Below, in pieces: positions 1,508 to 33,740 of a stretch of DNA of 64,000 nt. How positions within the stretch are numbered: the stretch's first letter is position 1; every line of letters starts with the position of its first letter. The stretch covers positions 744,001 to 808,000 of the forward strand of contig OX637800.1 in the NCBI GenBank assembly GCA_951802425.1, given 5' to 3'. Both the position numbers and the translations under genes were made by a program. The notes beneath the pieces are model-generated. The model made no database searches and was not told where the DNA came from. It was given only the letters and a program-made list of their open reading frames with translations. Source of the stretch: Clavaria fumosa (taxonomy: Eukaryota; Basidiomycota; Agaricomycetes; Agaricales; Clavariaceae).

Positions 1508-1521
1508 TCACCCCCCTCTTA
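1508..1521 (-). other. Polypurine tract of element A
   Basis: On the minus strand AAGAGGGGGGTGA directly abuts the TGTCAGG start of the 3' LTR. This is the expected plus-strand primer position for reverse transcription, and it fixes the element's orientation. Confidence 0.8.
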
Positions 1522-7668: not shown

Positions 7669-7827
7669 TTCTCCCAGGGGCTGAAAATGCAACTGCCCTC
7701 GGTTGCGACCAAACAAGGCCAAATAATCGTTTGTTGATCGTGAAGTATGCGTTGTGTGGGTGCACATAGGTCCAAACACGCACTTGTGTCTTCTCCAATA
7801 ACAGCAACGCATCAACCATCCAAAAAA

Positions 7828-9387: not shown

Positions 9388-9615
9388 TCATCTGTTAAAT
9401 ACACAAAAATTTTGTTTGTTTTTGTTTTAATTTTATGTTTTGTTACTGAGTGGAAAAATAGGTGAGAAGTGTGAGACTGAGGTATAAAGTGAAGAACGTC
9501 GGATATAAAGTTTGGAGTTGTCCGAAATTTCTCAATTTTTTTTTTTTTTTTTTTTGGTGTTGTTGAAATCAATGTAAATTATGGAGGAGTGAAGGATTGG
9601 ATGGAAACAAAATGC
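9388..9615. other. Spacer between antisense gene and integrase of B
   Basis: AT-rich, with a run of about 20 T at 9536-9555. It would be the shared 3' region of two convergent genes. No ORF. Confidence 0.6.
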
Positions 9616-11442
9616 TTAATGGCGAGGCCGAAGGTTCCGGGTTGCTCCGGACCGTTGCGGACGAGTTTCCGGAGCGTCGGTATCGGTGCCCTCGTTTTCG
9701 GATTCATCGGATAGATCGGCCGCCTGGTTTTCCTCATCTTCGGTGTCGATAGAGTTATGTGACGTCTCATGTGTTTGATTGTGAGGGACGTCCTCGTTTA
9801 TCTCCGTCGTTTGGTCAGTGATAGCAGTGACCGGAATCGATGTTTGCGACCGAGGATAGTAGGGAATGATGCGGAAAGCTGCGTAGTGGATTTTGGAGAC
9901 GGCCCCGTCGAGTTCCGAGAGAATATATGCGCCGTATTGAGTTCGGCGGACGACGATCATTGGTCCAAAGAATCGCGGTTTTGTCTTCCGGTTTAATTCC
10001 ATTTCTATGGCCAAGTTTCGGATCAATACCAGCGATCCGGGTTGGAAGTCGTAATCAATAATAGACTTGCGGTGTGCGTCGATGAACTGCTTGACGGATT
10101 GTTTGCGGGCGGTGAGCACTTTATCGGCGATTGTTGCAAGATCTTCTTCTCGTTTTTGCAGTTGGCAGGCACGAAGGGCTATCAGTTCCAGAGTGGTCAT
10201 CGGGGCATCGGCGGTCGGAATTAGATATGTTGCTTCGGATATGTCGAAAGGGAAAAGCGGTTCGACGCCGTGTGCGATGTAAAACGGAGAGTGACCGGTG
10301 GATCGTTGGATTGTGGTTCGTTCTGCCCAAATGACTGAGGGTAAAACGTCCGGCCATTTCGATTCGTCTCCGTCTGCTGCTTTGATTAACGACTCGCGGA
10401 CCGACCGGTGGGCACGTTCGATGACGCCGTTAGCGCGGGAATTATATCCGGAAATACGGATGTGATGGATTCCATACCGCTTCTTGAGGAAATCGAGAGC
10501 TTTGATAAATGGGGCACCATTATCCGTAATGATCTCTTCTACTGCTCCCCATCGGCACAGTATGTCTTCAAATATGAAGGTTCCGAGAAGTCGGGCGGTC
10601 TCATTTCGTAGCGGTCTTGCTTCTGGATATGCGGATAACGAGCATCGGGCGTGGACAAGAAGTCGGAAACTGCGGGTTCTGGGTAGGAACATGGTATCTA
10701 TATGCGCTTGACGAAAAAGACCGGCCGGTGTGGCGACCGTCGGTGGAATGAAAATCTTCCGGATTTGCCAAGTCTGGCATTGGTGACAAGTTCGGACAAA
10801 CCATTTTATGTCTTGATCCAACACCGGTCACCAGAACCGATTTAGAATACGTGTTTGGATAACGTAAACGCCTTTGTGGCCGAGTGAATCGTGTGCCTCT
10901 GTGATAATTGCGAGCCGTTTGTGGTCCGGAGGCACTACCTGGTGGCATCCGTTAGGTCGGCGACGCCATAGCTTGTCATCTAGAATGAAGAACTGGGATG
11001 CGGAGTGGACTAATCGTCGGAACTGGTTTGTGTCGATGCCAGAAGGACGGATCGGGTTTCGAAGGAAAGATTCGATTTTGCGGATCTGTTCTTCCCTTTT
11101 CTTTGCTGCGTCAGGTCGCGGTATAAGGATGGTGGAAGATTCATTCGGAGCCGGTGAATCATTGGATGGTACCGTCGAATTGAGTAGCATCGATCCTGTG
11201 TAAGCTTTGAGGCGAGAATGGGCGATGCCGGCGAGTGGCGTTTCGGATGGGTAGGAAGCGTCCGGTGCTCGATTCATGTGTTCCATGGCGAATACATAGC
11301 TCCGATCGATCCAGTCTTCGTGATCTTCGGACTCGGTGTCTTCTTCACCATCTGCGGCATGTCGGCGTGATAGTCCGTTGGCTCTGGTGTGTTTATCTGC
11401 GGGAATATGAACAAGGTCGAAATCGAAGAGTAGTATATCCAT
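9616..11442 (-). pseudogene. Element B RNase H end and integrase, one nonsense codon
   Basis: The frame opens inside the end of RNase H (FDFDLVHIPADKHTRANGLSRR) and continues through an integrase HHCC region (H..GHKG, CHQCQ) and a core with HIDTMF, ITDNGAPF and NSRANGVIERAHRSVRESL. It ends in an acidic then Arg-rich tail (RPQRSGATRNLRPRH) without a chromodomain. An in-frame TGA at 10828-10830 cuts it before the CHQC half of the zinc finger. It is joined to the RT frame by a one-base shift near 11430, so it is not translated as it stands. Confidence 0.85.
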
Positions 11443-13562
11443 CGATTCATGGCAGCGTTTGGTTGAACATCCGGATTGTTTAGCATACCCTTAATGAACT
11501 TCGCGTCCATTTCAACGGTGAATTTCGGAAGGCCGATAAGGTAAATCCGGTACGACCGAAGTGCGCGGAAGAGTCCGTATAATTCAATTTTTGCTTGAGA
11601 GTATCGGGCCTCGCATTCGTTCCAGGTAATCGAGCCGAATCTGGATGGGTATCGGATTCCATCTTGTCCGATTTGAAATAGCGCGAAGCCGACAGCGATG
11701 TTGGACGAGTTGATGGCCAAAATTACGGGCCGTCCAGAGCGGTAATCGATCGGTCGAATGGCGGATGAGTTGACTATTGCGTGTTTGAGTCGATCCATCG
11801 AATTTTGCTCTTCTTCTTCGAACCTGAATGGGACGTCCTTACGAGTTAGGCTGACAAGTGGTCGGGCAAGTACGGCGTAGTTTTTGATGAATATCCGGAG
11901 CAGTCCACAGACGCCTAAAAATGATCGTACATCTGTGAGTGTTTCGCATGGAGGCCAGTCTCGAATGTGCTGAACATTGGAAGCATCCGGAACTCGCCCT
12001 TCATATGTGCATGTGTGTCCGGTAACGATTGTTTCGGGGGTGCAAATTGTCGTTTTCTTGCCATTAAAGGTTCCTCTGACTATTTTGACTCGTTGGAGCA
12101 CCCGGTTGACGTTATTCAAATGCTCCCAAACGAACCGCCATATTTGCGGATTTTCTGGGATCGTCTCGTAAGTGCCATCCGGAAGCTCGTATCGGGTTTC
12201 CGGGCCCTTAATTGCTACATCGTCTACGAATGGGATGGTTACGTGCGGAATTTCGTCTTGTAGTATATGCGTGACGTCTCCGTGCATAATCTGTGTCACG
12301 TTGGTGTATCCCATGGGGATGCAAGTGAGCCGTTTGGCTCCGAGAGGGGTTTGGAACGTGGTAAGGTCTCGACTCCGTTCATCAAGAGATCGTTGATTGA
12401 AGGAGACGAATAGATCGAGAGTTCCGTAGCATCCGCATCCGGCGAATGATTCCGCAAAAACTTCCATTATCGGGGGAACTGCGGAGTCACCAATGGTGAC
12501 TTTGTTTAATGGCTGGAGGTTATGGACAAGTCGGAGAGACTTTCCGTCCTTCTTTAACACGCAAAACCACTGGGACCGATAGGAGGAGTTGGATTCTTCG
12601 TAGACTCCGGCCGCTATCTTGTCTCGGATAACCTTCAGAACTTCGTCGTAGATGCCAGGAGGAATCGGTATATTTTTGAAGATCCAAGGGACATGTTCGA
12701 CTGTCGGGATGATAATGGGATCGAAGTATTTTGCGTCGAATCGTCCTTTTTCGGTCTCCGTCCAAGCGAAGGCATCCTCTTGGGCTTTAATCAGATAGTG
12801 AACGAGTTTTTCTTCGTCCAGCCATAAAAATCCGGTGGGGTTTGCGTTATGCGCATCTTTCCGGTCTTGAGTATATCGGAGACTGGGGGTGAAATCGGGG
12901 GGGTGTGTTGGAAGAGTGGGGATATCGGAGAGGGGATCGGGGTGTTGTCGTCGGACAATCCGAAATTCTTCGGGTAGAGTTGCTTTGATCGGGTTGACAT
13001 GGTTTGCGACTTTCTTGTATTTCTTTCCAAGGTAAACTGGCATAACGATGTCCGGAGACGGTGTATTGGTTTCTGAGTTATTGGGGTACATTACGTGTGT
13101 GGTATCGTGGTACACCGGTGTGTATCCGGCGCTGACCAAGGCTTCATATGAAGTGCCCGAAATATCGGCAAAAGGAAGGGGATCGACAGGAACTAAATTT
13201 TCAAGAGAAGGAGATAAGAGATTGCGAATGGAAGTAGATAGAATAGCTGGAGACTCGTGTTTGTGTATAGCTTCCGTGTCCGCTTTGATTGGAGATGGCT
13301 CCGGAATGTTGCGGTGATCCGGGGCTCCAGCTATTAAAAATCCGGATGCGTTTTCTGAAGTTTGAGGTTCTTCCGGATCGGGATTCGCTCCTTTGTCGGT
13401 ACGATGATCCTTTCTCCAGTGTTCGGATCGTTCAGGATCAGGTCTTGGGCACCATGAGGATGGTCGATAGTTTGGGAGCCAGTAAGCATAAAGAACGGGC
13501 GTCCAACGAGGACCTCGCAAGGTAGGGTATTGGCAACCTGCATTTGGACATGAAACGTGCAT
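11274..13562 (-). pseudogene. Element B reverse transcriptase/RNase H
   Basis: Long open frame. Homology becomes clear from about 13300 downward: RT palm motifs (RSQWFCVLKKDGKSLRLVHN), catalytic PFVDDVAIKGP, connection and RNase H (RPVILAINSSNIAVGFALF, CEARYSQAKIELYGL). FVDD replaces the more common YVDD/YLDD and is seen in other mushroom gypsy elements. The frame differs from both the gag-protease frame upstream and the integrase frame downstream; the downstream change looks like a one-base indel near 11430. The first 70 or so codons, where the frame overlaps protease, are probably spurious. Confidence 0.85.
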
Positions 13563-15373
13563 GGACCGATCTGCAAGGGAAAGTTCTTTATCAGTCCGAG
13601 CGTCGGGGCAATGGTACCGTGTGAGGACTCCATATGAATTACGCGCTCGGAGTGCAGCGGATTACCGAGCTTCTCCCAAACGTCTCTTCGCATTGCCACG
13701 ATCGAGCTGCCTTGATCGAGCAAGCACTCCGCGGCGATCCGGCTATCCAATATGCCTTCTACGATGCGGAGCGGAGCGGCATCGACAGCTACGACAAGAT
13801 CGGAGGTGTCCGGGGTTGTAACGTTTGTGTAGAGCGTATCCTGTACGACGGACGCGGTGACCGGAACTCGGCGGGTGGTAACCATATCCTTCATCTTTTT
13901 GCGGACGTCTCCGGAAATGGCGAGTAATTCATGGGGTGTCACACGGACCGGAATGTTGAGTGTGCGATCGAAAACTTGTTGAACGGTTACCGGAATGTCG
14001 AGTGTGCGATCGAAAACTTGTTGAACGGTTACCGGATTTTCTATCGGAGCTTGGTAATGATACTGGACGTCGGATCGTTCGATTCTTTCCGGCTTCGATG
14101 GACGCATGACCAGAGGCGAGGTAATGACAACAGCGGGCGGAGGAGGTAACCTAGATGGCTGTGGATCGTTATTCCTGGGTGTGGGCGCTTTCCTTTTGCC
14201 CTTATCTACTTTCTTTGCTACATCGTTTGCAAAGGTGCGGACCATGTTTTCCAACGTGGTCGTCTCATTATCTTCTTCTTCTGATTCGTCTTCCATGTCC
14301 GGGGAGTGAGCGGATGGTCTGATCGGCTGTGCTTCAAATACCGCGGTTGTCGCCGGTTGCATGTTCTGGGATTGGTAAGTAGCGTAGTACTTGTCAAAGC
14401 GCTCGGATAAGTTATTTCCTATGATAGTCCCGGGCAAGTATCATCCGGAGGGGAGGCAAATCCTGCCTTCGGTGTTCCGTATACATTTACCGGACTTGAT
14501 GTATTTGAGGGCCTTCGGACAGGCACTAACAAAATGACCTGGTTCCGAACAGAAATTACACGTCCGGCCTGCAGAGGAATTTGTCGTCCGAGGAGCAGAA
14601 CGTTTTGCCTGTTCGAGAGACTGGGCTGATAAAATTGATTCGAGGCGAGCCATTGTGGAGGCGAATGTTGCCAAGGCTGCGGACATATCAAATTCTTCCT
14701 TCTTGATCATTGGTTTCGTCTCTCTCCCGGGGGTTGCGGATGCGAAGCGGATAGGTCCAGAGAATTGATCGGTTGTTACGGAGTGCGGGGACGTTGAGGA
14801 GAGTAGAAATTCGGCTGCGGCGTGAACCTCATTCATCGGGTATGGGTCCTCCGGATGGTGATTAGGTAGTATAATCGCGAGCCGGCTCTCGATCCGGCGC
14901 CTAGTATGATCCCCAAATCCGAGGATGTAAAGCCGGTTTCTGTCATTTGTGGACATACGTTGGGAGGTGATCAAGTGCGAAGTGATCCGGAGAAAGTCCC
15001 GGTAATATTCTCCGTGTTCTGCGCGTGTGTAAACCCCTTTTTGGGCCGAGTCGGATATGAAACGGTCCAAGTCGGCGACAGAGAACAAACGACCGCCATC
15101 GGAGCCTGGATAAAGGCGTCAGACAGCCGCTTTGAAGGTTTCCCAGGTCCATACCGGGTCCGGGGCTGGTGTGAGGGTCTCCCAGAGGAGACATGTGTCT
15201 GTGTCGAGGTAGTGCTTTGCGTACCGAATTAAATCGGCTTCCAGAACGTCTGGATTAATGCCAGTGAGTACGATGTCGATGTCCTCGAAATACCGGTTGA
15301 GATGGGTTGGTACTCCGTCAAAGGCGGGGGCCCCGTGAGCGCCACGGAGCGGATATCTCGGTTGGTTGGCCAT
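13334..15373 (-). pseudogene. Element B gag and protease, two nonsense codons
   Basis: Single frame with TGA at 15119-15121 and 14441-14443. The start is ATG 15373, but the frame stays open upstream to the LTR edge with plausible coding composition (see findings). Gag features: PVWTWETFKAAV, a capsid-like region, and a CCHC knuckle (CNFCSEPGHFVSACPKA). The protease near 13700 has CLLDQGSSIVAMR, a D-Q-G in place of D-S/T-G. Direct repeats in the linker (VTVQQVFDRTL, two copies at about 13950-14035) show a recent in-frame duplication of 51 bp. Confidence 0.8.
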
Positions 15374-15762
15374 TGGTATTGCTGCGTGAGGAAGTTCTTG
15401 TACGGCGTCGAGAGGATTCTGTGGTTCGTCTGTTGGAAATTGTAAGGTGTTCAGTTCGAGGGGTAGTGGTGTGAGCGGTGAGTGTGGTTCTTCGAAGATC
15501 TGTGGTAATGAGGTAACCGGGGTGGCAAAGCTTGTGTGGGAGTAAACAATGGATGAAATACTGGGAATGTCCGATGGAAGAAAGTGGGAAGTTTCAATTA
15601 CTTCTCCGGGAGGTTCGGAGTGCGGTGGTTCTGTGATTCGATCTGGGTTTCGACTTCTCAGACGTTCGGAGCGTCGAGGTTGGAAAGCGGAGGAGCCTCT
15701 GGGAATCCTTGAAGGCTGTAGTGAAGACGTTGTTACGACCCCCTCGCGGTGGGCTCCAAAAT
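15374..15762 (-). other. Leader of element B with probable primer-binding site
   Basis: Next to the 5' LTR end the minus strand reads ATTTTGGAGCCCACCGCG. The TGG-initiated stretch fits a tRNA-primed binding site, but I could not assign the tRNA. The gag frame is open through this whole leader. Confidence 0.55.
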
Positions 15763-16671
15763 TGTAGTAGGCTGTGCAGGTGTTGGCTGCAAATAGATGT
15801 TCGCGGCCAGGTTCTTCAGGGGGGTCTTATTACACAATGGGTACACTAGACAGAACCTTGGAGGATGTGGAGGTTGGGTGCAAAAGGTTCAGAAAGTGAA
15901 AATATACGTTGTCCGGAGTATCCGGTATCGGATCCGATAGAGTCCGATGTTTGGATCGAAGGTTCGAGGGGCCGGCGACGACGAAGGCCAGCGGATCAAT
16001 AGGTACGACAAAAGGTGAGCTTGCCAAAAAATCACAGCACGATGTGGGCATTCAAAAAGCTGGATTTCCGTATAGTCCGAAGTGTGCTTAAGTACAGTTC
16101 TGTAAGTGCAGCAAATTGGAATGTACGGAAATGTCCGGAAAACATATGGAACAGCGCCATGTCGCGTGAAGGGTTATATGGGGGAGTTATATCACAAGGG
16201 AATTGAGTAGCTCGGAGGAATGAAATGTCCGATGAGTAGCACATGTCCGGACCGCTCGTAAACTGAAGGAAAGTGGGGCTGGTACAGCAAAGGGGTATTA
16301 GGAACAATGGGCAAAGTACTGCAAAGGGTTTGAAACGTTCAAATGATTGAATGGTTGAAAGGGATCACAATATGAAATTTACAGCATGTTATATGAAATA
16401 AAGGAATGGGAATGGAATAGTGAGTATGTCGAGCGCTGACCATGCTGGAGTGATGAAATAGAAAGGCAAGGGCGGTGTGTGAGACCTGCAGGCTGTGATC
16501 TTTACGGGGAGTCAGAGACCGGAGAGTCTGATGTCAGGTAAGTATCGGTCGTTATCGGATGGTATCGGATTGTTATCGGATCGTATCGGACGTGATTGCT
16601 TTGGATCCCGAAATATCCGGATGATCGGTATCTGTCATGTTTCTATGTTTAAACCGCATATTATCCTTACA
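15763..16671 (-). repeat. 5' LTR of element B
   Basis: 909-bp partner of 6760-7668. Most differences between the two copies are C/T or G/A, many at CpG. Confidence 0.88.
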
Positions 16672-16708
16672 ACGGGGCTAGGGTGGACAGGGGTTGATGT
16701 TAGTATTG

Positions 16709-17013
16709 TGTCAGACTTAGTCTCACGGTTCACACAACTTAACGTAAGGTCGATGATGACGATACTAACATAAGGGGAAAAGGGTACAAGTAAGGAAACG
16801 ATGTGGTATATATAGCGAGCGGTTTGGGAGTTGCTGGCATTCCCACGCTCGGACCCCGTGCGTCACGTGATGCGTCCAGGCCCGGGTCACGTGATTTTCC
16901 CATTATGTAATCCACCACCCGTTCGGGTCACGTGACTTGTCCGCAAACTTCCCGCAACTCTTTTGCGATCCTTTCTTGGCCTTTCCAACCTGCTTATGTA
17001 AGCGATCCTGACA
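16709..17013 (-). repeat. 5' LTR of element A
   Basis: 305 bp, matching 1203-1507. It looks like a solo LTR until the shared TGCTG target duplication and element B nested between the two copies are recognised. The 37 bp between this LTR and element B (16672-16708) are the start of A's leader. Confidence 0.88.
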
Positions 17014-17018
17014 TGCTG

Positions 17019-18320: not shown

Positions 18321-19573
18321 CCTTATATGTTCTTATGTGTACTTGACTGTACTTCATTAAGAACATTTGTCTTAATAACTACTTGAATACTAATAAGTTG
18401 AGTCTAATTTGAGGATTAAGATCATTGAAGTTTGGCCAAGTTCTGGTCAAGAAAGTTTTATGTGTTTAAGACAGGTTTCAGTCAGATTCAGTAGCTGTAA
18501 GGCTAACTTTCAGCTCTTAATTATACTTGATACCTCTTGGTCTGCCAGATGCTAAGAATCATTAAGGCCTGCCAAGATTATTAAGATGTATCTAAGACAA
18601 ATCTGGAAAATTGGATTGTCTTAGACTAAGACAGTCTCGTCTTAGTCCAACTTGTCTTAATTTTTCTTAAATCCAACCTAAGACAGGTCTAAGACTGCCT
18701 AAGTCACTTTGCACTTTTCCTGATGTATTTGTCTATTTCCATTCTCACACCTTTCAGACATCCCTGTGATCTTCCGGGACCGAGTATTCTCAACTATACT
18801 CAACAGTTGATTGGTCTTAGCGAGTTTCCAGGACTGGTCACCAACAAGTCGACCTTCGGCATTACTTACAAGACAGGACAGGCCCTAACAGTCACCCATC
18901 TGCCTCCACATCACAACCTGCTTTTCAGCATAGCATCTATGACCACACAGGTGCTGCATTTCTGCTGAAATTGCCCTCCTCTCCCATTCCCTCTGTTGAT
19001 ATGCATACCATTTCAAATCCCATATTATTTCATATCTCACCAGCAACAACTCTTCATTCCACCTATCATATTGAGCATTTGCTCTAAGCCAGTACACCCA
19101 GAATACTTATTCAAATCAGCCTAGACACATGTTGGAAAGTGGATAATGTATGCAAGACATACTTTCATTCATCCAAGGGTTCCTTAATGGAATGAAATGG
19201 GACTGTGGCCTCAACATATGTGTTGTGCCACCACATATATACATGTCCCAAATTTACCAGATACAATCAATGCCTTATGACAAAGATTGAAATAACTCTG
19301 GAGTTCATCATAAGCAGAGAATGTCAAGGATGTTGAGGACAATGAGGACACAAGCTGAGCAAGGTCCTGATGGAAGTTCAAGGTCAAGAGACATTGATAT
19401 TCAAACTGTGGGTTGTCAAGATCTGTGCAGTTTTATATTAGGGCACATAGCTGGAGTTCATGCAGAAGATGTGAAGCTCCAGATACAGTGATGCAAGAGA
19501 TATTCAAGTGGGTGAAGGCCTGTGCACCAACAGGCACCAATTGAAAGGGAGTTCAAAGTAAACATACTAGTCT
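18321..19573. other. AT-rich non-coding sequence, dispersed repeat
   Basis: 18330-18740 is the same TAAGAC-rich repeat type as 1-680. The part from 18740 to 19573 shows no gene and no further structure. Element D inserted at 19574, duplicating AGTCT. Confidence 0.5.
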
Positions 19574-19800
19574 TGTAAGGCTATAGGCCTTTTCTATTCT
19601 TTTATTACATAATATACATACTATAATAGTCTACTAGCATAGCCGCTTAGGCCATGCTTACATCAGCGGCCCCTAGAGGGCCGCTCGCCTATATATATAT
19701 CGCGTCGCGACTGTACAGAGAGGGTAGATCCCTCTACATAGAACTACCATACTCAATATACAGTTGAGTCCAGTTCTTTTGAGGGATAGAAAGTATTACA
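19574..19800 (+). repeat. 5' LTR of element D
   Basis: 227 bp. It contains TATATATATA at about 19692-19701 and several hairpins, for example GCGGCCC/GGGCCGC arms at 19666-19684. Confidence 0.92.
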
Positions 19801-19838
19801 ACTTTTTTGAACCTTCAACACAACGAGTGTGGCTAGAA

Positions 19839-22511
19839 ATGGGTTACACCCGTATAGCCGCGCAGAAGAAGCACAACAGGAAGGGAGGAGAAACTCCTCC
19901 CTTGGTAGGACCTCTGCGCAACACAGGCATCGCGCAGCCAGAGGGAATAGGACCCTCTGTGGAGCCCAGCGGTGAGCCCCCGCTAAGGGCTGACGTGGCG
20001 TCACCAGCCCCTGACGACGGCATTAGGTCCGAAACATCGTCGACATGTGGCAATCGCCACGAGGAGGGCGCCACAACGCGCCAAGTCACTGGCAAAGCGC
20101 CATCGCTCGAGAAGGCCGGACCTTCAAAAGGAAAGGGCAGAGAGCCCTTAGAAACACGCGAGAGGTGGCCGCGAGAGCGGTCAAGCTCGCGGGCTTCCTC
20201 CAATAGTGAAGATGAGCCTACAGCGATAGCGCGAGCTAACGCTGTAGCCGAGAGACTCTCGGACATTCAGGCGGAACTTTCCTGCCAGGACGAAGAGTTT
20301 GAGGCTCTTGTAAGGGCGATGAAAAATCGCCAAGCCACTATTCGGCAACAGCTAAGCGAGGAGGCTACCCGCGTTAGGCGGGTGCTGGACTCGCTAGATG
20401 AGCAGGGAACCGCGCTAGCGGCTCCCTTACGGCGGCAACGCCGTGATTCGGTGGAACCCGAAGCGGGGCCTGCCCCGCCGAGTCAGGCGCCAGCCAACCA
20501 CGAGGAAGGGTGGCGAAGGGAGAACCGCACGGACGGTTCTCGAACCCCTGGTGAACCAGGAATGGAGGGCGGTAGCCCTCGAGAAATAGCGGGGCCGGAG
20601 CCGCGGCTTATGTCGCGCTACCCACAGCTGGGTCAGCAAGAGCCAACGGGCCGGATGGGTCCGTTCGGATGGATGGAACCGCCCCAGAAGGAGCGGGAGA
20701 TTACTCGGGAGGTGTCCCCGAGTTCTACAAACTACCAGAGCGATGTATTACATCGCTACCTTGTGATGATATGAGATAAAACCTCGCTATTGCCTGAGGC
20801 AATAGCTGAGATTAGGGGGATTAAGATTGACCCCCCTGAGCTTTATGATGGACGAGACGACCTCGTCGTCTGGGAAAGGTGGCTCGATGGCCTCCTTAAT
20901 TACTTCTACTTCTATAGAGTAGTCGGCCTGCAGTTGGAGCACCAACGCGTTATGCTAGCGGGGTCACGTTTAAGCGGAATAGCCGCTACTTGGTATACCC
21001 AAGAAGTAACGGGTCTATCCCGTGCTCCTCGAACGTGGACCTTCGAGGAATTGATAACTGCTATGTTTAAGCGGTTCCTGACCGAGGTAACGGCGCAGAA
21101 GGCAGTGGATGCCTTCTATCAGGTGAAGTTTACAAAGGCGAAGGGCACCTTGGGCTTCTGGAACGAATTGGCCCAGGCGGCAGAGAGAATGCTCACCCCA
21201 CCTGATGCCGGTACGATGAAAAGGCAGTTCCTTAACGGACTGCCTAACAAGATGGTGGAGGCCATCTTCAAAACTCGCGCAATTAGCGTTGAGTTATCCT
21301 CGGTTGAGGATATTATCGACGCTAGTCGCCAAGTGGAAGCGACCCTCCACTACCTCCAGCAGCGGAGGGCGGTGCCTTCGGTAGGGAACCAGGCAGGTCC
21401 CAAAGGAAACCCGCCTACAGGCAGAGTGCCTGTGGGGCAGAGGTTTGTGAGACTGCGGCTGTATCGGCCGCACACAGACCGTAGGCCAGGGGAACCTGTT
21501 CCCCTGCGGATCGACCACGCGCGAGACGAGCGTGTGCAAACCAGAGGAAGCAAACCCCGGCTAGAACCGCCTAAGGCGGTGCCCAAGATAGGGGTACGAG
21601 GCGGAGAGGAGTGGAAAGCTCCTCTAACATGCTATATGTGCGGGAAAGCAGGGCACTACGCGAATGTGTGCCCTCAGTCACAGCGAAAGCCAGAGGCTTT
21701 GAGGGGAAATGTAAGGAACTACGCCTTACAAGAGGAGCTGGGCGAGTTGGAGCCCGAGGAACCGCCGGAAACACTGGCGGTTGAAAGCAAGGAGCCGGAG
21801 GGTGAAGCCCTACCGGAGGAAGTCGCGGAAGACGACTACGCTGGTCGCGGGGACCAGTACGATTCGGACGAGCTCTTCGTCCTTGAAGAGCTCGAGGAGG
21901 AGGCGGAAAGCGACCAGGTCACTGGAATCCGGGAATTAGAAGAGGACGAAGTCCTCTACACGACAGAAGTACGCATTGGCCATGTCGACGACAGGCCATT
22001 TCGGGCGCATGTCTGGAAGGAGCGGATGGGATCGCGCCCGGTAGTAACAAAGGAGGCTAGGCAATGCCTCGCAGCCTACATCACCGTGAACGGTGTAAAA
22101 GCGTATACGCTTTTCGATTCTGGAAGTACCCTGGACCTGATGAGCCCGGACTTTGCCCGGGTGACGAAGGTACCAACTTTCCAACTGGATAATCCAGTTC
22201 CTATCCAACTCGGCTGTATCGGCAGCCGATCAACGATCACACGCGGATGCCGCGTAGTGGTGGATTTGGGAGGAATACTGGTGGAGGACCAGTATTTTGA
22301 TATAGTGAACATCGACCGCTATGATATCATAGTCGGAACGGCGTTCATGTATGACCGCCGTGTGATACTGGATGTGCACCGACGTGCAATCCGGATTGGC
22401 GAAGGGAAGGGAAAAACCCTTCAGGCGATGTCGCCCAGTGAGGAGACGGAAGCATTACGCGTCCGTATATCAGCTAAGAACGCGCCGAGGAAGGGAGCTC
22501 GAAAGAGCTGA
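19839..22511 (+). pseudogene. gag: Element D Gag and protease, one internal nonsense codon
   Basis: First ATG of the frame is 19839; the frame is open back into the LTR but only from non-ATG codons. Residues 1-310 are charged, with a coiled-coil-like part (RLSDIQAELSCQDEEFEALV). An in-frame TGA at 20772-20774 follows. The Gag domain resumes directly after it (PPELYDGRDDLVVWERWLDG, RVMLAGSRLSGIAATWY), with a CCHC knuckle (CYMCGKAGHYANVC, about 21631), an acidic linker and a retropepsin-like domain (YTLFDSGSTLDLMSP, IIVGTAFMYDRRVILD). A second TGA at 22509-22511 separates protease from RT. Codons before and after each stop stay in the same frame, so these are point lesions or readthrough sites. 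Confidence 0.85.
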
Positions 22512-25500
22512 CTACACTCGGGCCCCCGGGATGCGGGTGAGCCCTGGAAGGGGGGAGAGGCTAACGCCTCTGTAAAGATAGACGACGCCTACCTCGAAGG
22601 CAGGCGTGAGTACTGGTTTAACCAGTACGCTGAGCTCTTTGGGGGAGTTCCACCCAGACTGCCACCGTTTCGGGTGGTGAACCACCGCATACCCTTAATA
22701 GACGAAAAGCAAGTCTATAATTATTACCTGCCTCGGTGTGCTGAGGCATTTAAGGAACAATTCCTTGAGAAAGTGAACCGTTATATTACTAACGGTTGGT
22801 GGGAAGCAGGAGCGGCATCGCAAGCAGCTCCTATGTTATGCATACCAAAAAGCAGCTAGAACCCGCTGCTACGGACAGTTGTGGACTGTCGGAAACGGAA
22901 TGCAAACACAGTACGGGATATTACCCCGTTGCCTGATCAGGACCAGATCAGGCAGGACGTGGCTAGAGCCGCGTATAGGTCAAAGATTGACCTATCGGAC
23001 GCGTACGAGCAAGTACGCGTAGAGCCTGAGGACGTGTGGAAGACGGTGTTCGCAACCGTCTTGGGCACCATGTTCTCACAGGTGATGCAGATAGGGGATT
23101 GTAATGCCCCTGCTACCTTCCAGCGCCTGATGACGCATATATTTCGTCATCAATTGGGAAAGTACGTGCACGTGTACTTAGACGATGTATTCGTCTTCTC
23201 CAAGACCCTGGAGGACCATGAGCATCACTTAAAGACGGTCTTTGAGACCCTCAAAGGCGCGAGCCTTTTCTTGAGCAAGAAGAAGTGCTCGTTATACACG
23301 AAGAGCGTAGATTGCTTAGGGCATATTATAGATGCCCGAGGAATCCATGTCACAGTGGATAAAATGGATAAAATCCGTAACTGGAAAACGCCGACAAGCG
23401 TTAATGAGGTGCAGAGGTTCCTCGGATTAGTACAGTACATCGGACAGTTCATGCCCGATCTGTCCGCTTACACTGGCCCTTTGGCTAGTCTGTGTAGTGA
23501 AATGCGAACGTTTCACTGGAGACCACTCCATGACAAGTGCATGGAGATGATTAAGGCATTGGCGTGTAAAACGCCAATATTACGCCCAGTAGACGCGGCA
23601 GTACAGGAGCCAATCTGGCTCGTGTGCGACGCGTCAGTGTCGGGCGTAGGGGCCATGTATGGCCAGGGAAAGACATGGGAAACCTGCCGTCCGGCGGGGT
23701 TTATGTCTAAAAGGTTTAGCCCGGCCCAGTTTAGTTACAAAACCTGGGACCGGGAGGCCTTAGCGATTGTAGAATCACTACAGAAATGGGAGGATAAACT
23801 CCTCGGTAGACGAATCAACGTGGTCACCGACCACAAAGTGCTGGGGTTCTTTAAGAACCAAACGCGCTTGTCTGGCCGGCAGGCCAGGTGGATGGAATAT
23901 ATGGAGAGGTTTAACTACTCCATCACTTACATTAAAGGCGAGAGCAACAAAGTTGCGGATGGCCTTTCGCGTTACCATATGAGTGACGCGACGGATGAGA
24001 TTCATCCGGATCACGAGTACGTAAAGGCAGACGTTCGCCTTGACCCGGAAGGGGATGAGTTGCCCCGCGGACGCCTGGAGGAGGTGCGCGCACTACGAGT
24101 ACGCACACCTGCCGCGGACCAGGAGACCGAGCAGGAGCAACCGCCGCCTATGCCCCAAGCGGACGGGGATGTGAGGGACGAGACGCTCATGCCCTTAAGG
24201 CCCTGCGTGGAAGGGGGGGATAGCAGGATGCTGCAAAGCATCCGGGACGGCTATGAACAGGATCGCCTGTTCAAAATAATTTTGGAGAAACCGGGAAACT
24301 ACACCGGTTTTAAGATCAGGGATGACCTGATCTTAGCTGAGAATAAAAAAGGAGACGAGGTGCTCTGTGTGCCTCGTACCCCTCATGAAGGGAAAAGCAT
24401 CCCTGGGAGAATAATCCAGGAAGCCCATGCGGTCCTAGGACACATGGGGGCGCGGATAACGATGGATTACGTCCGCCGTTACTACTGGTGGCCATCGGTG
24501 TCTAAAGACATCGATAAGTTTTGCTCGTCGTGCGGCGTGTGCCAAACGAGCAAGACTTCCCCTCAGAAGCCGCAGGGGCTTCTACACACCCTTCCGATCC
24601 CCAGGCGGCCCTGGGAATCAATAGGAATGGACTTCGTAGGTCCATTTCCTATGTCGAAAGAGGCGGACTACCTCTGGGTGGTGATCTGCCGCCTCACTTC
24701 ACTGGTACACCTAGTACCAGTTACCGTTTCGGTAACGGCAGCAGAGCTAGCCTGGCTCTTCCTAACCCAGGTAGTGAGACTGCATGGGTTGCCAGGATCG
24801 ATTGTGTCCGATCGTGATCCGAGATTTACATCTGCCTTTTGGCAGGAAACACACCGATTACTCAGTGTCAAGCTGCGGATGTCCACAGCTTTCCATCCGC
24901 AGACGGATGGAGCGACGGAACGGTCGATCCGATCGGTGGTCCAACCGGACCAGACAGACTGGGTGGAGCGAATCCCAATGGTCGAATTCGCCATTAATGT
25001 GTCAATAAGCGCGTCAACGGGGTTTGCCCCATTTGAGCTCACCTATGGGTACATGCCCCAGATGATGGCAGAGTTGCCAGACGACCTCCGGGTGGTGCCC
25101 AGAGGGGTACGGATGTTCGCGGAGAAAGCCGCACTCAACCTTGCAATGGCGCACGACGCGATTATAGAAAGTCGCGTCCACCAAACGTTTTACGCTAACC
25201 AGCGTAGACGGGCAGAGCACCCGTTTAGAGAGGGAGAATTAGTCTACCTCTCAACGGAGAACTTGAATCTCCCTAAAAAACAAGCTAGAAAGCTCATGCC
25301 GAAGTTTATTGGGCCATACCCAATACGGTCATGTAGACCGGAATCGTCTACGTACGAGCTGGAGCTCCCCGACTTGCTAAAGTCGAGGAGAATCCACCCG
25401 ACGTTCCATGTCAGCCGGTTGCGGCGACATGAACCAAACGACGACGCGTTGTTTCCGCGTCGTGAAGTGAAAGTCTTTTATGACTTTGCTGTGGATCCAA

Positions 25501-25724
25501 AGGAGGAATGGCTAGTAGACGCCATTATTGGCCATAGGTGGGAAGGCCGCCACCTGGAATGCGAGGTTCGATGGAACCTCAGGGATACGACCTGGGAGCC
25601 GTACATGGGGGTCAAAGAGCTGGCTGCTCTAGACCATTACCTTGAACTACAAGGTGTAGACTTGTGGAGGGCGCTACCTAGGCGCCCTCGAGCAGAGCGC
25701 AGACGGAACGCCCGCGCAGAGTAG
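22512..25724 (+). pseudogene. pol: Element D RT-RNase H-integrase-chromodomain, one nonsense codon
   Basis: Same frame as Gag. The RT N-terminus (REYWFNQYAELFGG) is cut by TAG at 22857-22859 just before LLRTVVDCRKRN. After it the frame is open for about 950 codons: RT catalytic VYLDDVFVF, RNase H (WLVCDASVSGVGAMYG, ESNKVADGLSRY), integrase zinc finger (H..GHMG, CSSCGVC) and DDE core (GMDFVGPF, SDRDPRFTSAFW, HPQTDGATERSI). The segment after the catalytic Glu looks a few residues shorter than in relatives, suggesting a small in-frame deletion. A chromodomain closes the protein (VDAIIGHRWEGRHLECEVRW, TTWEPYMGVKEL). Confidence 0.88.
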
Positions 25725-25858
25725 TAAACGCGATCGAGCCAGACCGCTGGGTCGTTAGCCACAGTGACTAAGTCACGTGGTGGCTCCACCGTAAGGTACA
25801 AAACCTTAAGAGGGCCCACCCTCTTTTTCTCTTTTTTCCTCATCAGCCATTTGTTACA

Positions 25859-27977
25859 ATGGATGATCCGATGGGGGAAACCCCATCTCCTCGCGCTACC
25901 CGCGCCGCCGTCCCTGGCCTTGCACCAGGGAACTCGCTGCCGACAAGCATTGTCGGAACGGCTGGGTTGTCCCAGCCGTCGTTGTCGCAAGGGGAGGAAA
26001 CTCTCCCCTGGGTCCAGGATCGCATGATCCATGCGATCACCCATGGATCCCGGTGCACTCAGTGTATCGGATTCCATCGTCACATCTTCGAGTCGCTGCT
26101 GCACTCAGACGAAGCGTTTCAACAAACACTTAAGGAAGCGCAGGAAAGCGCTAAGCGTGAGCTCGAGCCGGAGCTCGGAATGATACAACGCAAGTTGGAT
26201 GACTTGCATGAAGAGTATGAGAAGGGCAATGCCCTTTGCGCTGGGCATCGGCAAAAGCTTGAAAAAGCTTACGATAGCCTGGATAAGGTCGAGGCCGACC
26301 TTAGAAAGGCGAAGGAGAAGGTTCTCTCCTTGACAGAAAAGTTGGCAAGCGCCAACGAGGAGCTCGCCGCGGTGCGAACGGCGGCGAAAGGGAAGGGACC
26401 TGACAGGGATCCCTTGGAGCGGGACCCTAAAAGGGCCCGCACTGCTGTCTCATACGCGGACATAGCGCCGCCTATGGGGGACGTGGACGTCCCCATGAAC
26501 ATTGAGGAGGGGTATCCCCCTCTTCCACCTGCTGGTGTTAGCCAGCAGAACCCCGATGCCTCACTGAGGCATAAACGAACGTTTGCGGAGACGGTGCTTG
26601 CGCCTCTGACAAGGGGTTATCCCTTTAATGCCCCCCACCCGGACAGGGCTCCGGATGGCTATCCCTGGCCATCGGGGATGTCCGTCAAGCCTGGGGCATG
26701 GGCTGTTGAGTTGAAGACGGTTGAAGAGGTGATAGCCCTCAACCAGCAGGCGCACCATGGAGCGCCTGACAGCAGTTATGATATGACTGCCGTAATGAAG
26801 ATGCGATGGGCCGTTAAGGAGGCCCAGAAGAACGCGGCAGCAGGAAAGCTGCCTACGCCAGTTGAGGACTGGCTGTTGAGGAACTGGAGAGTTCCTGCCG
26901 GCGTCGAGAAATCGGCAGACCGGGTGGCACGCCATCTGCAGGGGCAGATGTTGCGAGAGAGCGGAGGGATGGGTGACCCATCCCTGAGGGCAGGACCCTT
27001 GGAAGTCGCAGGAGGGGGAGCACCCTCCTATCCGTCGTACCAGACATTGCCGCTGACAGCGGCAAGAGTGGTTGTGCCTCCCATTAGGGAGTTTGTAGAG
27101 ACCGGGGAGCCGTTGCTCCCCCAAGAGCTGTGGCTCTCCTTTGTAGGGGAGAAGGGAGAAATTCCCCCTATGAACCCGAAAGGCGACAGAGGCGCAGTGT
27201 CAGACCTGCGCTGCTGGGCCGCCGACATAAGGATGGGCAGAGCGGCCGTCCTTGGTATTGATAAGGACGGGGATTCACCCCTGTCCTTTGCACGTAAGGT
27301 GGCCATCTGGCGTACCATAATGGCGTGCGCACCGTCCCGGGCCCGAATGCGGCGCCCGTTCCTAGCAATGGCTGTAGCCCTCTTTGTGTCAAAGGGGGCG
27401 TACGCACAGGCCATTAAAGGGAGAGTCCTCCCTGCATGACGTTCCAGGCACTGGAACACAAAGATAATGCCAACCGTCGTGCAGACGATTGAGGCGTTTG
27501 TAGACGCCGGAGTCTCCGTTGGGGAAACGGAGTTCTGGGACAAGTTTGTACTCGCGTGGGCACGCGAGTACGTGTGAAAGGGGAATGCCCCCTTGGACGA
27601 TGATATCCAGCTAGCGCTGGGTGAACGGGAGAAGCCTCCCGTACCGCCCCGGACATATGCACTGCTAGATGCTAGAGTGCATAGGGCGCGGGGCGCGTCC
27701 GTGCTGTCTTCGGTTAAGCGAGAAGGCGGGAGATGAACGGAGGGGCGATGCGCCCCTGGAAGACGGTGGAAGCACGTCCACCGTTAGAAACCCCCTAGGG
27801 CTACCTATTGGGGGTTTAACAATATCCCAGACAGAGGGTGCGGGGCCCTCTCAAAAACAGAAGAAAGCGGCTAAATCATCAGCCGCTAAGGCCGCGAAGG
27901 GGCCTGTTGTGTCGTCGCCCGACTGGAGCGACGATGAGGGCGAGCCGCCATGCGACTACAAGCAGGGCTCGGACTAA
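25859..27977 (+). pseudogene. Element D third ORF, unknown function, decayed end
   Basis: ATG 25859 opens 526 codons lying 134 bp after pol on the same strand. Features: a cysteine/histidine cluster (HGSRCTQCIGFHRHIF, about residues 59-75), a long predicted coiled coil (about residues 90-180), basic words (DPKRARTAV), then a segment with no fold I recognise. The frame continues past TGA stops at 27437-27439 and 27575-27577. After a frame change near 27735 it reaches a Lys/Ala-rich and acidic tail (QKQKKAAKSSAAKAAKG, WSDDEGEPP) ending at 27977. The position matches env or extra ORFs of other LTR elements, but I see no signal peptide or membrane segment, so an envelope role is unlikely. It could be a nucleic-acid-binding accessory protein; that is inference. 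Confidence 0.6.
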
Positions 27978-28274
27978 GCGTCCGAGCCCTTTAAAAACAT
28001 ATGCCTACCCCGCAGGACGAGACAGCGGCACTTGGGGCACCCCCCACCGGGGCGTGCCGCTCGTGACACGCTGTCCAACTGGGGGCAGGTCGCGCAGACC
28101 ACTGGGTAGGACCCGTCAGCACCAGGCGAAGGCCCCAGGAGGGGATTGCGCCCGGTGACATGGCGGTAACCCTGCCCAAGGGGATGCGCCCCTTGTAACG
28201 CTATTCTACTTCTGCTCGTCGTCCCGCACCGCCTGCGCGTTGCCTCTGGTTGGGGCCTCTCCGGAGGGGGAGGG
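27978..28274 (+). other. 3' non-coding region and polypurine tract of element D
   Basis: 27964-27990 is an 11-bp-arm perfect hairpin with a 5-nt loop at the end of the third ORF, followed by stacked GC-rich hairpins around 28020-28080. The polypurine run GGAGGGGGAGGG ends at 28274 against the 3' LTR. Confidence 0.7.
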
Positions 28275-28501
28275 TGTAAGGCTATAGGCCTTTTCTATTC
28301 TTTTATTACATAATATACATACTATAATAGTCTACTAGCATAGCCGCTTAGGCCATGCTTACATCAGCGGCCCCTAGAGGGCCGCTCGCCTATATATATA
28401 TCGCGTCGCGACTGTACAGAGAGGGTAGATCCCTCTACATAGAACTACCATACTCAATATACAGTTGAGTCCGGTTCTTTTGAGGGATGGAAAGTATTAC
28501 A
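28275..28501 (+). repeat. 3' LTR of element D
   Basis: 227 bp, nearly identical to 19574-19800. It ends 164 bp from the 3' end of the lectin-like gene at 28666. Confidence 0.92.
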
Positions 28502-28665
28502 AGTCTGCAAATGGTCAGATGTTAGCTGAACATCCTAATGTCCATCAGAGCACACCGATTCTGGAATTGAAGTACGCAAGACTGAGCCACTGACGTTACT
28601 TCACACGACATACTACGGAACTTCCATGAACAACTGTTTACATGTCAAGCCAGATTGCACCAAGC

Positions 28666-31017: not shown

Positions 31018-31870
31018 AGTAGACTGTGTAGATCTACATAGACCCTGTAGAACCCATAGAACCCATAGACAACTTCCTGGTCTATGTAGAACTACATAGA
31101 TACAGGCCTTTCTATGTAGAACTATGTAGAACTATGTAGATGGTGCTTCCAGCCTGCCACCACCACCCCTCCCTTCCTTTGCACACCAGCTGCTGCGAAT
31201 CAATGGCCCAGGTCCCCGTCATCGGTCTGTGACCCCAGTGGGGGGCCTGGGCCATTGTTGCTGCTGCTGTTGCTGCTGCCGCCACCCGCCGCCGCCGCCC
31301 ACCGCCGTTGCTGCTGCCGCCGCCGCCGCTGCCGCCGCCCGCCGCTGTCGCTGCTGTTGCCGCCGCCGCCGCCCGTCGCTGTCGCTGCTGCTGCCGCCGC
31401 CACCGCCCGCCGCTGTCGCTGCTGTTGCCGCCGCCGCCGCCCATCGCTGTTGCTGCCGCCGCCGCCGCCGCTGTTGCCGCCACCGCCGCCCGTCGCTGTC
31501 GCTGCTGCTGCCGCCGCCGCCGCCCGCCGCTGTCGCTGCTGTTGCCGCCGCCGCCGCCGCCCGCTGCTGTTGCTGCTGCCGCCGCCGCCGCCCGCCGCTG
31601 TCGCTGCTGCTGCCGCCGCCGCCGCCGCCCGCCGCTGTCGCTGCTGTTGCCGCCGCCGCTGCCCGTCGCTGTCGCTGCTGCTGCCGCCGCCGCCGCCCGC
31701 CGCTGTTGCTGCCGCCGCCGCCGCTGTTGCCGCCGCCGCCGCCCGTCGCTGTTGTTGCTGCTGCCGCCGCCGCCGCCGCCCGCTGCTGTTGCTGCTGCCA
31801 CCGCCGCCGCCTGCCGCCGCCGCCCACCGCTGTTGCTGCTGCCGCCACCGCCGCCGCCCGCTGCTGTTGC

Positions 31871-31901
<31 letters not shown>

Positions 31902-33740
31902 TGCCGCTGTTGCTGCTGCCGCCACCGCTGCCCGCCGCTGTTGCTGCTGCTGCCGCCGCCGCCGCCCGCCGCTGTTGCTGCTGCCGCCGCCGCCCGCCGC
32001 CGCTGTTGTTGCTGCTGCCGCCGCCGTCATCCGCTGCTACCGCCGCTGCCGTCGTCCGCTGCTGCTGCTGATGCTGCTGTCGTCGTCATCGTCCGCTGCT
32101 GCTGCTGTGGCCGCTACCGCCACCATCGCTGTTGCTGCCGCTGCCGATGCTGCTGCTGTCGCTGCCGCCGCCGTCATCGTCGTTGCTGGAGGAGAGAGAG
32201 AGGGAAAGGAAGAGGGAGGAGGGAGGGAGGGAGGGGAGGGAGAGAGGAGAAAGAGGAGGAGGGGTGAGAGAGTGGGGTGAGGGTGAGGGTGAGGGTGAGG
32301 GTGCCGCCGCCGTCCGTTGACCTGTAAATAGTGGAATGAAAAAATAAAATAAAATGAAAATGAAACAAGACGGGGGAGGGCGCACCCGGTGTTGCTGCCG
32401 CCGCTGTTGCCACCGCCGCTGTCACTGTCGCCGCCGCTGCTGCCGCCACTGAAGGAGAGGGAGAGGGAGAGGGAGAGGGAGAGATGAGAGGGAGAGGGTG
32501 CCGCTGCCGCTGCCGCCGCCGCCGCCGCCGTTGGAGGAGAGGGAGAGGGGGAGGAGAGGGAGAGGGGGAGGAGAGGGGAGAGAGGAGGGTGCGGGTGCCG
32601 CCGCCGCCGCCGCTGCCGTCGTCGTCATCGCCGTCATCGCGCCGCCGCTGCCGCTGAAGGAGGGAGGAAAGAGAGGGAGGAGAGAGTGTGGAGGGTGCCG
32701 AGAGTGATGTGTCATGTTCAACATGATCACATGGTCATATTTCAAATTACATAATACAAGTGGCAGTGACGACAGCAGTGACAGTGAGCGCGAGCAGTGA
32801 CGATGACGGCGGCGGGCAGTGATGGCAAGGGCAGCGGCGCATCGTCGGCGGCGGACAGTGACGAGGTGGCGGCGGCGGCGGCAACGGACAGTGACGACGA
32901 GGGCGGTGGCGGCAGCAGCGACGGACAGTGACGACGAGGGCGGCGGCAGCAGCAGCGGCGGACAGTGATGAGGGCGGCGGCGGTGGTGGCGGCAGCGGGC
33001 AGTGACGACGACGGTGGCGGACAGTGCTGACAAGGGTGGCAGCACGTCGGACAGTGACGAGGGCGTCGGCGGCGGCGGCGACGGACAGTGACGACGAGGG
33101 CAGCGGCGGCAGCGGCGGCGGATAGTGACGAGGACGGCGGCGGCGGTGGCAGGCAGTGACGATGACGGCGGCGGACAGAGATGACAAGGGCGGCAGACAT
33201 TGATGAGGGCGGCGGCGGACAGTGACGAGGACAGCGGCGGACAGTGACGAGGACGGCGGCGGCGGCGGCGGGCGGTGACGAGGATGGCAGCGGACAGTGA
33301 TGACAAGGGCGGTGGCGCGGCGTTGGCGGCAGTGACGAGGACGGCGGCGGTGGCGGCGGCGGGCAGTGACGAGGATGGCGGCAGACAGTGACGAGGGCAG
33401 CGGCGGCAGCGGCGGCGGACAGTGACGAGGGCGGCGGCAGCAGCGGCGGCGGACAGTGATGAGGGCGGCGGCAGTGGCGGCGGATAGTGACGAGGGCGGC
33501 GGCGGCAGCAGGCACAGTGCACAATGACGACAAGGGCAGTGGTGGTGCACAGTGACGACGAGGGCGGCGGTGGCGCATGACAATGACGGCCACAGCAGTG
33601 ACCACCACCATGACAATGATGGTGGGCAGCTCTACTAGTGGTACATAGCACCATGTTCTACAACTTGAACAAGGGCCATTCATTGAACAGACTGCAGCTC
33701 CAGAAAGGCCTCATCTACATAGTACTGCATAGATGCACCT
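31018..33740 (-). repeat. Low-complexity block, copy 2: trinucleotide tract, core and minisatellite
   Basis: Read on the minus strand: a minisatellite of GGACAGTGACGA/GGCGGC units (33630-32755 in plus coordinates); a short AT-rich spacer (about 32700-32755); CTCC-rich tracts; a T-rich core starting GGTGCGCCCTCCCCC (32388-32325); (CACCCT)n near 32300; and a 900-bp (GGCGGCAGCAAC)n-type tract (32160-31241). The core and its order match copy 1 at 17.5-18.3 kb. Open frames through it are repeat artefacts. Confidence 0.75.
31033..31090. repeat. Inverted repeat at the left edge of the low-complexity block
   Basis: TCTACATAGACC (31033-31044) and GGTCTATGTAGA (31079-31090) are perfect 12-bp inverted arms. 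Further TCTATGTAG/CTACATAG words occur to 31140 and at 33705-33800, just outside the other edge, so this word family brackets the low-complexity block. Confidence 0.6.

What the first reader, a model, noticed from the sequence alone, without database searches (positions are those of the whole stretch)
19574..28501. Element D is packed with short perfect inverted repeats along its whole length, coding and non-coding
Reading D, a perfect hairpin with 6-11 bp arms and a loop of 0-10 nt turns up roughly every 20-40 bp (counted by eye, not computed). Checked examples: 19881-19903 (10-bp arms, 3-nt loop), 20786-20806 (10-bp arms, 1-nt gap), 22097-22114 (18-bp palindrome), 22274-22296 (9 bp), 22931-22953, 22999-23020 and 23040-23062 (8 bp each, within 130 bp), 24701-24721 (8 bp), 25870-25887 (7 bp, GAAA loop), 25958-25979 (9 bp), 26018-26038 (8 bp), 26965-26985 (10 bp), 27964-27990 (11 bp). 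They run through LTR, Gag, the YLDD codons of RT, the third ORF and the 3' region, while the protein stays a normal chromovirus. I do not see this in A, B, C or host genes here. Two explanations fit: selection for an RNA that folds locally everywhere, or a mutational process, such as the element's own RT switching template within quasi-palindromes and making them perfect. The 1-nt gaps argue for the mutational route. I know of no described element with this property.
Basis: seen in the sequence. Interest (0 to 1): 0.92.

Follow-up and report, generated by a model that had tools for sequence, protein, structure and literature searches.

The report
Retrotransposon filled with perfect hairpins
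A fungal LTR retrotransposon carries about seven times more short perfect hairpins than chance along its whole length, and copies of it show hairpin loops flipped in place, which suggests that a copying error rather than RNA function makes or keeps them.

Summary
Confirmed, far from chance. D (19574-28501) has 172 perfect inverted repeats (arm >=6, loop 0-12) against 22.8 +- 5.0 in 100 dinucleotide shuffles. Shuffles keeping protein, codons and dinucleotides leave a 4.5-6.6-fold excess per ORF. The excess ends at the LTRs, is absent from elements A and B and host genes, and occurs in 20 further copies and related sequences.

Likeliest: template switching inside hairpins during the element's own copying, filtered by protein selection. 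Among 21 copies five hairpins have inverted loops, two of them on several haplotypes. The pattern is strand-symmetric, and six structured ssRNA phages with comparable folding scores reach only 1.4-3.8-fold. New: 5' arms are purine-rich in 98 of 135 hairpins.

Not settled: stems evolve slowly at third positions in the three most diverged relatives, which selection would also give. Stem repair accompanying two flips could be CpG decay. No non-CpG compensatory pair was found. Flips do not separate D from family D2. A simple simulation misses the purine polarity. No DNA from other species was reachable.

The parts
19574..19800 (+). 5' LTR (TG...CA); 5-bp duplication AGTCT at 19569-19573 and 28502-28506
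   Evidence: direct repeat D6; ends and duplication read from the sequence printed
28275..28501 (+). 3' LTR; 2 differences in 228 aligned sites from the 5' LTR
19764..20774 (+). ORF1, 336 aa, no Pfam match; 16 inverted repeats vs 3.6 in codon shuffles
20790..22511 (+). Gag and aspartic protease (RVP_2; zinc knuckle just below its cut-off); 36 inverted repeats vs 5.4
22512..25724 (+). Pol: RT, RNase H, integrase zinc finger, Tf2-1-like SH3 domain (rve below its cut-off); one in-frame TAG in this copy; 61 inverted repeats vs 11.1
25859..27439 (+). ORF3, 526 aa, no Pfam match; 37 inverted repeats vs 7.2
19914..19937 (+). Hairpin whose 2-nt loop AG (19925-19926) is CT in copy L018; there the arms are a perfect 11 bp, the one mismatch being removed by a C to T at a CpG
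21027..21048 (+). Hairpin whose central GG (21037-21038) is CC in 4 copies on two haplotype backgrounds
25086..25104 (+). Hairpin whose loop GGT (25094-25096) is ACC in L028 and ACA in D2; both also carry a pairing T at 25089
25870..25887 (+). Hairpin, 7-bp arms, loop GAAA; TTTC in copy L011
27548..27571 (+). Hairpin whose loop GG (27559-27560) is CC in L009 and L013, on two backgrounds
23180..23196 (+). Hairpin over the two aspartate codons of the RT YLDD motif

Best explanation
D is a Ty3/gypsy-type LTR retrotransposon whose DNA is loaded with perfect hairpins by a mutational process. While its DNA is copied, the polymerase switches template inside an imperfect inverted repeat and copies one arm, with or without the loop, from the other. 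This perfects stems and sometimes turns the loop over. Purifying selection on the proteins decides which tracts survive. SHOWN: the excess and its limits; the loop-size spectrum; Watson-Crick stems without strand preference; loops inverted in place between copies; slow evolution of stems in the most diverged relatives; the purine-rich 5' arm. INFERRED: that switching also perfects and originally made the stems; that the enzyme is the element's own RT (because elements A and B and host genes lack the excess); that the switch is to a same-sense strand, perhaps residual genomic RNA during plus-strand DNA synthesis. That would invert loops, and purine-rich RNA with pyrimidine-rich DNA is the most stable hybrid (recalled), which would fit the purine-rich source arm.
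For: Excess confined to D. Loop spectrum of a folding single strand. Equal folding of both strands (z -2.91 and -2.97) and A.C 16 vs G.T 13 in one-mismatch stems. Six ssRNA phages: comparable z but 1.4-3.8-fold excess of perfect repeats against 7.1, sense strand better folded in 6 of 6 (each within two standard errors), G.T 38 vs A.C 24. In-place inversions with a transversion within the D family: 8 listed at five hairpins, 7 with arms >=5; controls 3, 2, 1 and 0 (2 of the 3 complement events arm-flanked, probably the same GG/CC sites). Same inversion on different haplotypes at 21037 and 27559. Reverse-complement blocks >=10 nt: 85 non-independent copy-pair patterns in 7 places vs 1-4 per control. 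Post-insertion decay shows no repair and no strand preference, so whatever maintains stems acts in replicating lineages. Simulation: about 0.13 sequence-changing switches per point mutation gives a 7-fold excess.
Against: The stem repair that accompanies the flips in L018 and L028 is in both cases a C to T at a CpG; L009 has the first without a flip and D2 shares the second, so independent decay or inheritance is possible. Between the D family and D2 the inversion scan gives 4 events, none arm-flanked, against controls 3, 2, 4, 1. No two-sided non-CpG change. Polymorphic stems have the pairing allele ancestral in 6 of 6 polarisable cases, 5 not polarisable. Stem-making variants exceed expectation only slightly (21 vs 13.4). 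Slow evolution of stems also fits selection. Simple copying gives 5'-arm purine fractions of 0.49-0.54 and arms longer than 11 bp, unlike D's 0.618 and maximum 11. Inversions per non-CpG low-frequency variant (at least 5, perhaps 7, to 382) are several-fold fewer than the simulated need.
Confidence: 0.48

Rival explanations
1. Selection for a genomic RNA that folds locally everywhere (genome-scale ordered RNA structure, or many packaging hairpins), tuned through synonymous codons.
For: Sense RNA folds as strongly against its shuffles as ssRNA phage genomes. Third-position non-CpG fixed differences are rarer in stems: 5/223 vs 26/317 (L051), 6/221 vs 21/314 (L052), 40/366 vs 87/449 (L033). Conserved residues are not distorted. 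Stems keep their places in relatives.
Against: Antisense folds as well; A.C as common as G.T; perfect-repeat excess about twofold to fivefold above the phages. Loops are inverted without apparent consequence. No non-CpG compensation. No loop motif stands out (24 four-nt loops, 4 GNRA).
Confidence: 0.23
2. Selection for hairpins in a single-stranded DNA intermediate (for example shielding cDNA from nucleases or deaminases, or a DNA-binding protein); this would be strand-symmetric and Watson-Crick only.
For: Same symmetry and perfection; loop optimum of 4-5 nt, which suits DNA hairpins (recalled); stems conserved.
Against: No known LTR element needs this (recalled). Loop inversions show that strand switching does occur at these hairpins.
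Confidence: 0.15
3. Host polymerases flip and convert hairpins after insertion; the hairpins have another origin.
For: Three of the five inversions are seen in single copies and could post-date insertion; small inversions between short repeats are reported in other genomes (PMC8755829, PMC9653739: listings and abstract starts only).
Against: Decayed CpG pairs show no repair after insertion (50 pairing, 58 not, in the D family); A, B and host DNA show no clear excess; two inversions are shared by several copies.
Confidence: 0.1
4. Composition, codon usage or a counting artefact.
For: None found.
Against: 172 against a maximum of 36 in 100 dinucleotide shuffles; codon-preserving shuffles likewise; seen in all 21 copies examined.
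Confidence: 0.005

Closest known systems
Template-switch mutations that create and maintain RNA hairpins (PMC8794818; passages and the Discussion section seen)
   Same: Perfect stems made by copying one arm from the other; full loop inversions taken there as a sign of interstrand switching
   Different: There rare events in rRNA and microRNA genes under structural selection; here an element-wide load in protein-coding DNA. Stem repair is not independently proved here
Quasi-palindrome correction in E. coli (PMC7202029; search listing and start of abstract only)
   Same: Imperfect inverted repeats as hot spots of template-switch mutation
   Different: Studied there in bacterial replication; here across a whole eukaryotic retroelement
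Genome-scale ordered RNA structure and ssRNA phage genomes (concept recalled; six phage genomes measured)
   Same: Pervasive local folding with comparable scores
   Different: Phages have 1.4-3.8-fold, D 7.1-fold excess of perfect repeats; phages lean to the sense strand and to G.T, D does not
Yeast Ty3 RNA structure and palindromes (PMC11381356; passages only)
   Same: Local RNA structure in a Ty3-type element
   Different: There six short palindromes near the 5' end were examined and one acts in dimerisation; the passages seen describe no element-wide excess

Membership tests
Ty3/gypsy LTR retrotransposon | LTRs TG..CA with target duplication | tested here: met
Ty3/gypsy LTR retrotransposon | Protease, RT-RNase H, integrase in that order | tested here: met
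   (integrase by its zinc finger and SH3 domains; rve 21.3 bits, below its 32.6 cut-off)
Chromovirus | Integrase C-terminal chromodomain | tested here: inconclusive
   No PF00385 at E 1e-3 in D; 7 of the 120 listed homologues carry it
Ordered RNA genome structure under selection | Folding energy well below shuffles | tested here: met
   z -2.91 sense
Ordered RNA genome structure under selection | Sense-strand bias and tolerance of G.U | tested here: not met
Ordered RNA genome structure under selection | Compensatory covariation in stems | tested here: not met
   No two-sided non-CpG change in five relatives; with CpG included, 8 paired and 0 unpaired two-sided changes in L033 and 11 and 0 over seven relatives, which attributes to random CpG decay; low power at this divergence
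Template-switch / quasi-palindrome mutation | Loop inverted in place between inverted repeats | tested here: met
   within the D family; not seen between D and D2
Template-switch / quasi-palindrome mutation | Stem changed to match the other arm in the same event | tested here: inconclusive
   L018 and L028 fit, but both changes are CpG-type C to T; single-site creation 21 vs 13.4 expected
Template-switch / quasi-palindrome mutation | Occurs during the element's own reverse transcription | not testable with these tools
   inferred from restriction to this lineage

The most novel reading that the evidence does not exclude
A retrotransposon whose own reverse transcription sculpts its genome into hairpins. 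During plus-strand DNA synthesis the RT switches onto purine-rich genomic RNA inside quasi-palindromes, writing perfect stems, flipping loops and leaving hairpins with purine-rich 5' arms, so that the architecture of a whole element is set by a replication error filtered through protein selection.
Probability: 0.3. Interest if true: 0.92.

Novelty: new variant of a known kind. Interest (0 to 1): 0.78.

Why it matters
Whether perfect hairpins come from selection on RNA or from template-switch mutation is an open question, argued mostly from rare events in RNA genes. Here one element has about 150 non-overlapping hairpins per copy, dozens of copies, and no sign of sense-RNA selection, so the two can be separated by comparing copies, strains and relatives. 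It also warns that strong folding scores in a retroelement need not mean a functional RNA structure.

Tried and rejected
Considered and rejected or not claimed: (1) composition or codon usage. (2) A host-wide process. (3) Inserted palindromic repeats: hairpins lie in conserved codons and at the same places in relatives; 57 indel classes showed no clear templated insertion. (4) Paired CpG changes as covariation: random decay, 50 pairing vs 58 not in the D family, 118 vs 183 with relatives. (5) In-place inversions without a transversion filter: 634 events swamped by CpG decay, replaced. (6) Depletion of shared polymorphism in stems: p 0.069 with arms defined on the family itself; 16 vs 61 and not significant with arms from relatives. 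(7) Hairpins forcing odd amino acids: not seen. (8) A clean '5' arm is source, 3' arm is copy' reading: third-position purine against native usage is +0.024 and -0.148 overall but +0.091 and -0.087 for arms >=8; the difference of 0.172 lies inside the range of 60 codon shuffles (mean 0.021, SD 0.094, maximum 0.278), and the simulation does not give the polarity. (9) On re-checking I withdrew the claim that two events repaired a stem, because both changes are CpG-type; the main confidence was set lower for that.

Led nowhere: viral contigs and genome contigs gave no relative, so no DNA from other species; the CAD search (best 120 of 2644 listed) named no host; ORF3 gave one homologue. Eight paper searches (listings and abstract starts) showed no report of a hairpin-dense retroelement; the library lacks most subscription papers.
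Full report
WHAT WAS CLAIMED AND WHETHER IT IS THERE. The finding says that element D is packed with short perfect inverted repeats. It is. With arms of at least 6 and loops of 0-12, D has 172, one per 52 bp, covering 35.6% of its length; 100 dinucleotide-preserving shuffles average 22.8 (SD 5.0, maximum 36) and cover 4.6%. Shuffles that keep protein, codon usage and dinucleotides leave a 4.5- to 6.6-fold excess in each of the four ORFs. The 13 examples are present. The excess ends with the element: bins of 1 kb wholly inside D hold 16-26, no other bin more than 9, and 2 kb on either side are near shuffle level. Element A's 5' part (20 vs 14.8 +- 4.0), element B (23 vs 21.0) and the host CAD region (17 vs 16.4) show no clear excess. 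In the 228-bp LTR alone the count is too small to tell (3 vs 1.06, shuffle maximum 4).

GEOMETRY. There is no excess at loop 0, a sharp peak at 4-5 nt (26 and 27 against 1.2 and 1.4), a tail to about 17 nt and little beyond 20. This is the profile of a strand folding back, not of palindromic sites. Arms fall off from 78 of 6 bp to 2 of 11 bp, none longer.

THE ELEMENT. LTRs TG..CA of 227 bp with a duplication AGTCT (sequence); Gag-protease; Pol with RT, RNase H, integrase zinc finger and Tf2-1-like SH3 domain; two ORFs without Pfam matches. Pol homologues at 52-67% identity include Phanerochaete and Trametes entries, so the host is inferred to be a basidiomycete-type fungus; its CAD gene named no species. 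The YLDD aspartates are invariant in 30 aligned sequences. The genome (48.8 Mb, 17 contigs) has at least 40 copies. This copy has one in-frame TAG in Pol; copies without stops in the matched stretches exist. Hairpins do not distort conserved residues: of 283 columns at least 95% conserved D deviates in 9, 1 of them in arms, against 68 of 274 non-deviating columns in arms.

IS IT SELECTION ON RNA? D folds far below its shuffles (z -2.91), but the antisense strand does as well (-2.97). One-mismatch stems have A.C as often as G.T: 16 and 13, 21 and 15 with looser limits. Six ssRNA phages have comparable folding scores (-1.8 to -3.0) but a 1.4-3.8-fold excess of perfect repeats against 7.1 for D; their sense strand folds better in 6 of 6, though each difference is within two standard errors; pooled G.T is 38 and A.C 24. 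CpG decay, the main variation among copies, makes G.U and A.C about equally often in stems (358 and 410), and when both arms have decayed the result pairs 50 times and fails 58 times. So D consists of perfect Watson-Crick hairpins with no sign that the sense RNA is what matters.

THE KEY OBSERVATION. Among the 21 copies, 12 linked clusters with a transversion were listed. Five of these places proved to be hairpin loops turned over in place. The systematic scan found 8 reverse-complement events at these five hairpins, 7 with flanking arms of at least 5 bp. Controls gave 3 complement-only (2 arm-flanked, probably the GG/CC sites themselves), 2 reverse-only, 1 and 0. At 25870-25887 the loop GAAA is TTTC in L011. 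At 21037 and 27559 GG is CC in 4 and 2 copies, in both cases on different haplotype backgrounds that otherwise carry GG, so flips recur or have been exchanged. In L018 (19914-19937) and L028 (25086-25104) the flipped hairpin is also perfect where most copies have a mismatch. I do not count these as proved repairs: each is a C to T at a CpG, L009 has the first without a flip, and D2 shares the second and has a similar loop. A wider search for reverse-complement blocks of at least 10 nt gave 85 copy-pair patterns in 7 places against 1-4 for each of five control transformations; with blocks of at least 8, 100 against 2-11 (not independent). Between the D family and D2 there is no such signal: 4 inversion events, none arm-flanked, controls 3, 2, 4 and 1; blocks of at least 10 gave 3 each way against 0 or 1. 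Full loop inversion is described for template-switch mutation and taken there as a sign of an interstrand switch (PMC8794818, Discussion).

LONGER TIME SCALE. Family D2 (about 82-85% identical, 12 loci) and four of six fetched pieces of other family members are also rich: 43 vs 10.6 (L033), 24 vs 5.3 (L041), 35 vs 5.3, 36 vs 5.9 and 38 vs 6.3 (L051-L053); L042 and L043 were not counted against shuffles. Many stems lie at the same places: of 39 D2 repeats placed on D, 23 share a centre with one in D. Fixed third-position differences outside CpG are rarer in stems in the three most diverged relatives: 5/223 vs 26/317, 6/221 vs 21/314, 40/366 vs 87/449. The other four pieces have 0-4 differences per class and no consistent direction. 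So stems seem to be maintained; repair under protein constraint or selection could both do this. No two-sided non-CpG change was seen in five relatives. In D2, 42 non-CpG pairs of D stems are broken by a one-sided change while 9 pair only in D2. Polymorphic stems have the pairing allele ancestral in 6 of 6 polarisable cases, 5 more not polarisable. Low-frequency non-CpG variants make stems slightly more often than expected (21 vs 13.4) and break them less often (42 vs 55.6). Present-day data thus show maintenance and flipping better than creation.

A NEW ASYMMETRY. Of 153 non-overlapping hairpins, 98 have a purine-majority 5' arm, 37 a pyrimidine-majority one, 18 are tied (p 1.5e-7 if hairpins are independent). 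The 5'-arm purine fraction is 0.618, against 0.50 +- 0.046 in shuffles, 0.485-0.539 in codon shuffles, 0.457 in A+B and 0.48 in the host stretch, and 0.45-0.55 in the phages. Relatives lean the same way, some weakly (0.53-0.60). Because the arms are reverse complements, this polarity reads the same on both strands. Against native codon use the 3' arm deviates more (-0.148) than the 5' arm (+0.024), as if it were the copy, but this is not so for arms of 8 or more and lies within the spread of codon shuffles. A simulation with 5'-to-3' copying reaches a 7-fold excess at about 0.13 sequence-changing switches per point mutation, yet gives purine fractions of 0.49-0.54 and arms longer than any in D. 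The polarity needs a further cause, for example purine-rich RNA as the preferred alternative template. That is inference.

VERDICT. The mutational reading is the better supported, chiefly by loop inversion, strand symmetry and the phage yardstick. The agent (the element's RT), the strand involved and the original making of the stems are inferred, and selection is not excluded. Eight paper searches showed no earlier description of such an element.

Noticed in passing
L029-L040 and one search list (G000): A rearranged, internally deleted relative of D (D2, about 82-85% identical, copies about 99% alike) sits mostly near contig ends: 13 of the 17 near-full-length matches lie within 120 kb of one. 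It looks like a subtelomeric repeat derived from a D-like element.
   Followed up: partly
19574-28501 and copies L009-L028: Copies differ mainly by C to T and G to A at CpG (968 of 1350 low-frequency variants), a sign of cytosine methylation decay after insertion.
   Followed up: partly
25859-27439: ORF3 is an orphan: one homologue among 7996 scored candidates (P0121, 60% identity over 46%) and no Pfam match.
   Followed up: partly
1201-17014 and 6760-16671: LTR element B (909-bp repeats, 98% alike) lies inside LTR element A (308-bp repeats); neither shows the hairpin excess.
   Followed up: partly
31220-33589: G+C-rich arrays of units of about 34-37 bp, open in several frames on both strands.
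   Followed up: no
25900-25911: A GC-rich simple repeat at the start of ORF3 varies in length: copies carry 3-45 nt more than the window copy.
   Followed up: no
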